A stretch of DNA of 64,000 nt, taken from positions 1,082,267-1,146,266 of the forward strand of contig NW_006921542.1 of the NCBI RefSeq assembly GCF_000340215.1. The letters run 5' to 3'. Below the pieces are notes generated by a model. It made no database searches. It had not been told where the DNA came from and was given only the letters and a program-made list of their open reading frames with translations. The stretch comes from Pseudocercospora fijiensis CIRAD86. Its lineage: Eukaryota; Ascomycota; Dothideomycetes; Mycosphaerellales; Mycosphaerellaceae. Each line of letters starts with the position of its first letter. Within the stretch, counting starts at the first letter, position 1. Shown in pieces: positions 12,076-12,717 of this stretch. The translations under genes were made by a program, and so were the position numbers.

Positions 12076-12717
12076 CTAATCCGCTATAAATAGACGCCGA
12101 ATTTTAGCTAGAAGCTATATATCTTTATTTTAAAGAGTAACCCGCTTCGTATAGATAGTAAGGAGGTTTAAAAGCTTAAGCTCGGTTACGAGAAATGCCT
12201 CCGTAGCTTCCTAAAGAGCACTAATCGCCTTAGCCGTAAATCGTATACTAGACCGAAAATCTAATATAATTTCTCGGACGAGTCGCTAGAAGGGAGTCTT
12301 AGGGATTAAAAGCTCGGTCCCTCTTTTGTTTTAGAAAAGCCGGATCTAGCGAAGGGTAATAGTACCTAGTTTAAAGCGCCGCTTCTTTATAGTCGAGTCC
12401 TACCTTATTCCCTTTCTTTTAATAGAAAGATAACTTTTCTTCGCGATAGTCTTCGTCTGCCTACTCTTTTTAGCCTTCTCCTATCTACCTATAGCCTTCT
12501 TATTTTTCGGTACTATTTTCTAAGGAACCCCCTTCTTTCGTATATACTACGGAGAGCCTTACTCTTCCGATATCTCGTTCTCGCTACGGTCTCCCTATAC
12601 TTAGCTTACTTTACCTTTACCCTTTAGCCTCTAAAGATATTTATCTACGTATTTAGGCGATAAGGGTATATCGGTAGGACCTAGAAAATTAGTAAGCATA
12701 TAATCGTAAGGAGACAT
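12076..12717 (-). pseudogene. Histone H3-like protein with long N-terminal tail, RIP-mutated
   Basis: An ATG at 12,717 opens a - strand frame of 213 codons, broken only by TAG/TAA, closing at 12,076-12,078. From about codon 115 it follows a histone H3 fold. GTITLRxIRLF matches 'GTVALREIRRYQ', TELLIPKTPFxRLVREI matches 'TELLIRKLPFQRLVREI', IRFTAKAISAL matches 'LRFQSSAIGAL', EATEAFL fits, and TKRVTLxNKDIxLLAKIRR matches 'AKRVTIMPKDIQLARRIRG'. There is no CENP-A-type insertion in loop 1, but 'LLTIY(H)' and 'RVTL' are CENP-A-like residues. The N-terminal part, about 110 residues, is longer than the roughly 44 of canonical H3 and is rich in Lys/Arg and Ser, as in Cse4-sized variants. It lies 3' of a hAT transposase on the same strand. 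It may be a captured or duplicated H3 variant. It is dead as it stands. Confidence 0.82.

What the first reader, a model, noticed from the sequence alone, without database searches (positions are those of the whole stretch)
12076..12717. Histone H3-like gene of about 213 codons beside a hAT transposase
A clean ATG-led frame with an H3 fold and a tail of about 110 residues (canonical about 44) lies on the transposase strand. GCCGGC palindromes typical of the hAT copies flank it on both sides (about 13,005 and 11,995), which suggests it belongs to the mobile unit. A transposon carrying an H3 variant could influence chromatin or centromeric loading; that role is inferred.
Basis: partly seen in the sequence, partly recalled or inferred. 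Interest (0 to 1): 0.87.

Follow-up and report, generated by a model that had tools for sequence, protein, structure and literature searches.

The report
Dead histone H3 inside fungal transposon
A fungal jumping gene picked up histone H3 sequences and spread them through the genome, where the fungus's own mutation defence destroyed them; the element was published in 2019, and what is added here is that one of its two histone copies still shows introns and that both seem to have stayed in frame for a while.

Summary
The H3-like frame at 12076-12717 (minus) is real (Pfam Histone E 1.1e-21 with stops as X) but not clean: 14 internal stops. It lies inside a hAT element, far from its ends. A full copy is 9602 bp with inverted-repeat ends and 8-bp target duplications; the window copy is cut off on the left at 10883. 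Length, ends, copy identity, RIP damage and an intact H3 on contig 6 match the element published for Pseudocercospora fijiensis (Dhillon et al. 2019, PMC6710886). Already known.

Additions: a full copy holds a second H3 (H3-B), missing from the window copy. H3-B has an intron-like stretch where the intact host H3 has an intron, and the paper's '16-aa insertion' reads as a 48-nt intron. This speaks against transcript capture for H3-B. Between two subfamilies, indels in the H3 frames are 5 of 5 multiples of three, against 6 of 27 elsewhere, so both frames were probably kept for a time. Codon-position tests are negative or weak. A centromeric-histone origin is not supported, though not rejected as a whole. 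GCCGGC motifs are internal repeats, not ends.

The parts
10883..18384 (-). hAT element copy, coding strand minus; truncated on the left (bases 1-2442 of the full copy are not found in the window)
12076..12717 (-). H3-A: H3-like pseudogene, 213 codons with 14 internal stops; long extension, H3-tail-like stretch, H3 fold (Pfam stretch about 12097-12471)
   Evidence: coordinates of the Pfam stretch computed
13353..13466 (-). weak match to the hAT C-terminal dimerisation region (PF05699), below Pfam's cut-off
   Evidence: E 0.021; same place in 10 of 10 other copies scanned, best E 0.004
14888..14917 (-). SITTDNASNN stretch; resemblance to hAT transposase catalytic-domain motifs is recalled, from no call
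   Evidence: sequence found; a homologue search with this region found nothing at E <= 0.001
18365..18384 (-). terminal inverted repeat at the surviving end
10963..11686 (-). two tandem copies of a 361-bp unit; 360-bp unit number varies between copies
18001..18251 (-). two tandem copies of a 123-bp unit near the surviving end
11997..12002 (.). GCCGGC, one of many internal repeats of the element
13019..13024 (.). GCCGGC, one of many internal repeats of the element
40670..45629 (+). second, truncated and internally duplicated copy of the same element, reverse orientation to the first; the H3-A and H3-B parts are missing

Best explanation
The feature is part of one truncated, RIP-inactivated copy of the histone-H3-carrying hAT transposon already published for Pseudocercospora fijiensis. 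The full element carried a transposase gene and, on the same strand, two H3-like genes: the long-tailed, divergent H3-A seen in the window, and an intron-bearing H3-B that this copy has lost. It multiplied by transposition (8-bp target duplications), and RIP then filled the copies with stops. The H3 genes are captured cargo; the protein has no present function in the copies examined. Shown here: the sequence, ends, target duplications, stops, second H3 and intron-like stretches. Inferred: the host's name, past mobility and expression, the order of events, and that the H3 frames were translated for a time after capture.
For: Histone match; ends in 16 of 20 copies on the left and in the three copies of which both ends were fetched, with identical 8-bp duplications in 3 of 3; length 9602 bp; RIP signature in 57 of 64 1-kb bins of the window ((CA+TG)/(AC+GT) at most 0.36); 8 to 14 internal stops in each of 29 copies counted; in the genome-wide histone search 148 of 150 scored matches carry stops, the two without being host H3 and CenH3 exons; second histone match in the full copy; agreement with PMC6710886 in length, 8-bp duplications, 20-bp inverted repeats, one or two H3-like copies per element, identity (96.5% there, 96-97% here) and original H3 on scaffold 6.
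Against: The transposase is supported here only by a Pfam match below cut-off and a recalled motif, and a homologue search found nothing. Searches scored only a part of the candidates (40 of 398; 150 of 772), so an intact copy elsewhere is not excluded.
Confidence: 0.93

Rival explanations
1. Published reading in full: an H3 transcript or retrocopy was captured, the second copy differs by a mutational 16-aa insertion, and the copies were made pseudogenes rapidly by RIP.
For: Stated in PMC6710886. H3-A shows no intron at the host intron-2 place or at the place of the insertion. Transversions give no codon-position bias for H3-A (12, 8, 14; p 0.21).
Against: H3-B has GTAAGT (16 of 17 copies), TACTAAT and TTTAG (17 of 17) bounding a stretch at the host intron-2 place, with tail and fold in different frames; the insertion is 48 nt with a TACTAAT-type branch site and TTTTAG, and 5 of 17 copies keep a GT donor. 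Frame-keeping indels 5 of 5 against 6 of 27.
Confidence: 0.3
2. The two H3 genes were working parts of the element for a long period, encoding H3 proteins that acted on the element's chromatin, before RIP.
For: Indels of three in both genes (5 of 5); subfamily ii keeps transposase, H3-A and H3-B blocks while long stretches between and beyond them do not align; the third-position excess for fixed H3-B transversions (9, 10, 18; p 0.038); expressed H3-like gene of a hAT in Pyrenophora tritici-repentis (passages of PMC3538342).
Against: No codon-position bias in H3-A; H3-B exons change no more slowly than flanks (37 of 385 against 25 of 388); H3-A changes at about the rate of the transposase region. 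The indel test is small, used frame limits that I set after seeing the alignment, and a 1-nt indel lies four bases ahead of the ATG.
Confidence: 0.25
3. A working H3 or CENP-A variant gene of the transposon that influences chromatin or centromere loading now.
For: Histone fold; repeated in many copies.
Against: 14 internal stops here and 8 to 14 in each of 29 copies; CenH3 grouping costs 13 log units (AU p 0.11) and host CenH3 alone p 0.036.
Confidence: 0.01
4. A damaged tandem or dispersed duplicate of a host H3 gene that only happens to lie beside a hAT element.
For: Host H3 and H3-A share the fold.
Against: In 20 of 20 copies fetched the frame is inside continuous element sequence, and 3 of 3 copies with both ends known have target duplications outside it.
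Confidence: 0.01

Closest known systems
H3-carrying hAT element of Pseudocercospora fijiensis (Dhillon et al. 2019, PMC6710886)
   Same: Length class 9.5-9.9 kb, 20-bp inverted repeats, 8-bp target duplications, one or two H3-like copies, RIP in all amplified copies, original H3 on scaffold 6.
   Different: I take it to be the same element. Read differently here: the second H3 copy shows introns, a weak dimerisation-domain match exists, and direct repeats exist; the paper reports no intron, no dimerisation domain and no direct or inverted repeats.
H3L-carrying hAT element of Pyrenophora tritici-repentis (Manning et al. 2013, PMC3538342; passages seen)
   Same: hAT element with an H3-like gene between its inverted repeats, present in many copies.
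   Different: 5.6 and 2.3 kb forms, nearly identical copies with ESTs, one H3L; the 2019 paper found no similarity between the hAT sequences of the two kinds.
Fungal CenH3 (CENP-A)
   Same: Histone fold; a few shared residues such as EAFLV and RVTL-type stretches (alignment rows).
   Different: Loop 1 has the H3 length; not grouped with CenH3 in the trees, though the joint clade is not rejected (AU p 0.11).
Metagenomic H3-like protein P0001
   Same: Nearest row to H3-A in both trees; 46% identity in A2.
   Different: 164 aa, open frame on a 1189-base contig, no context known; the branch joining it is weakly supported (81; 95/16).

Membership tests
hAT DNA transposons | 8-bp target site duplication | tested here: met
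   3 of 3 copies with both ends fetched
hAT DNA transposons | short terminal inverted repeats | tested here: met
   left and right ends compared; common left end in 16 of 20 copies
hAT DNA transposons | hAT C-terminal dimerisation domain (PF05699) | tested here: inconclusive
   window E 0.021, 15 bits, cut-off 21.4; 10 of 10 copies scanned match, best E 0.004
hAT DNA transposons | transposase catalytic (RNase H-like) domain or DUF659 | tested here: inconclusive
   no Pfam match in six frames with stops as X and no homologue at E <= 0.001; PMC6710886 reports DUF659
H3-carrying hAT of P. fijiensis (PMC6710886) | 9.5-9.9 kb, 20-bp inverted repeats, 8-bp duplications, up to two H3-like copies, about 96.5% identity | tested here: met
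   9602 bp, ends, duplications, second histone, 96-97% over 851 bases
H3-carrying hAT of P. fijiensis (PMC6710886) | host is P. fijiensis, original H3 on scaffold 6 with three exons | tested here: inconclusive
Histone H3 | histone fold of the H3 type | tested here: met
   PF00125 E 1.1e-21; H3 relatives (stops read as a residue in that call)
Histone H3 | open reading frame giving a histone | tested here: not met
   14 internal stops
CENP-A / CenH3 | longer loop 1 than H3 | tested here: not met
   H3-A, host H3 and host CenH3 rows printed, read by eye
CENP-A / CenH3 | groups with CenH3 in a tree | tested here: inconclusive
   not grouped; joint clade 13.0 log units worse, AU p 0.113; with host CenH3 alone p 0.036

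The most novel reading that the evidence does not exclude
The transposon carried two H3 genes of different descent, one still with introns, and kept both in frame as working parts of the element while it split into subfamilies: H3 as a transposon-encoded chromatin protein, not a retrocopy that was dead on arrival.
Probability: 0.25. Interest if true: 0.65.

Novelty: already known. Interest (0 to 1): 0.3.

Why it matters
The element is a published example of a transposon amplifying a core histone gene. The added points bear on how genes enter fungal transposons (DNA with introns, and not only transcripts) and on whether transposon-borne histones were translated before RIP destroyed them. Both can be tested by comparing related species.

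Tried and rejected
GCCGGC as element ends: rejected, it is scattered through the element. H3-A as CenH3: not supported. My first CenH3 clade test (p 0.003) is not used: one CenH3 row in it groups at 100/99 with a row I had left outside the clade; one search repeats the test without those two rows. One search also gave p 0.047 against H3-A, H3-B and host H3 as one clade; not repeated. Selection by transversions: H3-A i-ii 12, 8, 14 (p 0.21), i-iii 9, 5, 5 (p 0.81), ii-iii 9, 4, 10 (p 0.21); H3-B 10, 12, 18 (p 0.083), fixed differences 9, 10, 18 (p 0.038). Homologue search with alignment A2: 7982 of 7985 scored candidates passed, and the 120 listed were mostly named as H3 or CSE4-like proteins; it told nothing about H3-A's kin. 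Transposase homologues: none at E <= 0.001 of 1486 candidates. A Pfam call on H3-A in a wrong frame found nothing and was repeated in frame. Row L044 of alignment A1 was in a wrong frame; A1 was not used further. Rfam: 0 matches at gathering threshold in the window.

Papers. PMC6710886: abstract, Background, Results, Methods, Discussion part 1 of 2, and passages. PMC3538342 and PMC8616336: passages only. All others: search listings. That introns in H3-B are not in print rests on the searches and on the 2019 paper's opposite statement; the library lacks most subscription papers.

Full report
What is there. The frame from 12717 to 12076 on the minus strand begins with ATG and ends with TAG. With stops read as X it matches Pfam Histone at E 1.1e-21 over residues 83-207. 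It carries 14 internal stops and its longest open run is 28 codons; no ATG frame of 100 aa or more overlaps 5000-20000. In 57 of 64 1-kb bins of the window the ratio (CA+TG)/(AC+GT) is at most 0.36; the exceptions lie at 21-24 and 29-33 kb. That is the mark of repeat-induced point mutation (RIP), so the stops are damage and the frame is a pseudogene.

Where it sits. The window is part of contig 11 of a 73.9-Mb genome in 30 contigs. A DNA search with 851 bases scored 40 of 398 candidates: itself and 39 others at 96-97%. I fetched 20 of those places as 10-kb loci. All 20 share continuous sequence around H3-A, starting at window 10883 to 10896. That is not the element's end: other copies continue leftwards, and 16 of 20 reach one common left end, 2.44 kb beyond window 10883 in the copy measured. 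Four right-hand stretches were fetched. Three belong to copies whose left end I had, and 3 of 3 show identical 8-bp duplications; the fourth shows the end of a copy in opposite orientation. One full copy measures 9602 bp. The window copy lacks bases 1-2442 and ends at 18384.

What it is. PMC6710886 describes such an element in Pseudocercospora fijiensis: 9.5-9.9 kb, 20-bp inverted repeats, 8-bp duplications, one or two H3-like copies, 784 H3-like copies in 471 elements, RIP in all, the original H3 on scaffold 6. Here the best histone match in the genome is an intact H3 exon on contig 6. Of 150 matches scored (772 candidates) the only other one without stops is a CenH3 exon on contig 5; the other 148 list four to seven stops by my reading of the table. 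The host name is inferred from these agreements; the number of contigs differs (30 against 56 scaffolds). PMC3538342 reports an independent hAT with an expressed H3-like gene in Pyrenophora tritici-repentis (passages).

The second histone. In the full copy a second Histone match (E 3.2e-16) lies in the left part, which the window copy lacks. Its tail and fold are in different frames. Between them is a stretch that starts GTAAGT, holds TACTAAT and ends TTTAG, at the place of the intact host gene's second intron. In the 17 of 20 copies in which I found this part, GTAAGT is kept in 16 and the 3' end in 17. The stretch carries GCCGGC minisatellite units. A second stretch of 48 nt with a TACTAAT-type branch site and TTTTAG end lies where the paper reports a 16-aa insertion; 5 of 17 copies keep a GT donor there. 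Both stretches are also in a copy of subfamily ii. The paper concludes that a transcript or retrocopy was captured because no intron was seen; that fits H3-A, in which I see no intron at these two places, and not H3-B. Splicing itself is inferred from sequence.

Subfamilies and frame. H3-A occurs in at least three subfamilies. Two copies of subfamily ii fetched at 10 kb (L045, L046) keep the transposase, H3-A and H3-B blocks, while long stretches between and beyond do not align. Between the full copy and L045, indels inside H3-A and the H3-B exons are 5 of 5 multiples of three; elsewhere in the same aligned blocks, which include the transposase region, 6 of 27 (Fisher p 0.0023). I set the frame limits after seeing the alignments, and a 1-nt indel lies four bases ahead of the ATG. 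Single copies L039 and L040 have 1-nt deletions inside H3-A, as expected after death. Transversions, which RIP does not make, show no codon-position bias in H3-A (12, 8, 14, p 0.21; the two other subfamily pairs likewise) and a weak one in H3-B (10, 12, 18, p 0.083; fixed differences 9, 10, 18, p 0.038). H3-B introns are nearly free of fixed transversions (1 of 135) while exons (37 of 385) and flanks (25 of 388) are not; I cannot explain that. On balance both frames were probably translated for a time after capture; selection on the protein is not shown.

Descent. In a tree of 126 rows and one of 32 rows the three H3-A rows form one group (99; 100/99), nearest to a metagenomic protein, P0001 (81; 95/16). 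Many forks are unresolved and H3-B has a long branch. Holding H3-A with the CenH3 clade costs 13 log units (AU p 0.11), with host CenH3 alone p 0.036, with host H3 p 0.094, with H3-B p 0.26. So descent directly from host CenH3 is disfavoured and the rest is open. H3-A has an extension of about 84 residues ahead of an H3-tail-like stretch; it is recognisable in subfamilies ii and iii.

Other features. A weak hAT dimerisation match is found in 10 of 10 copies scanned, of 20 located, best E 0.004, below the curated cut-off in the member shown; the paper could not identify this domain. Direct repeats, which the paper did not identify, are present: two 361-bp and two 123-bp units in tandem, and GCCGGC repeats, 31 against 1.6 expected from 100 dinucleotide-matched sequences.

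Verdict. A known element and a dead copy of it. The intron and frame results are modest additions, at odds in part with the published account, and related genomes can test them.

Noticed in passing
window about 21000-24000: GC 0.18-0.21 and milder RIP signature than the surroundings; 22109-22603 read by table 4 matches NADH dehydrogenase chain 6 (PF00499, E 7e-20): looks like mitochondrial DNA inserted in the nuclear genome.
   Followed up: partly
window 29000-32500: Island of GC up to 0.55 without RIP signature with open frames up to 249 aa; only a weak Pfam match to Stb3 (E 0.07).
   Followed up: partly
L013 element bases 1715-1385 (H3-B introns): The two intron-like stretches of H3-B have 1 fixed transversion in 135 sites between subfamilies, against 37 of 385 in exons and 25 of 388 in flanks; unexplained.
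   Followed up: partly
window 10670-10882: Short tandem repeats rich in GATCG/CTTAGGATCG lie exactly where the element copy is cut off.
   Followed up: no
full element (L013), clusters along its length: GCCGGC-centred units of 12-13 bp in both orientations, 31 GCCGGC in 9.6 kb; possible protein-binding sites, not tested.
   Followed up: partly
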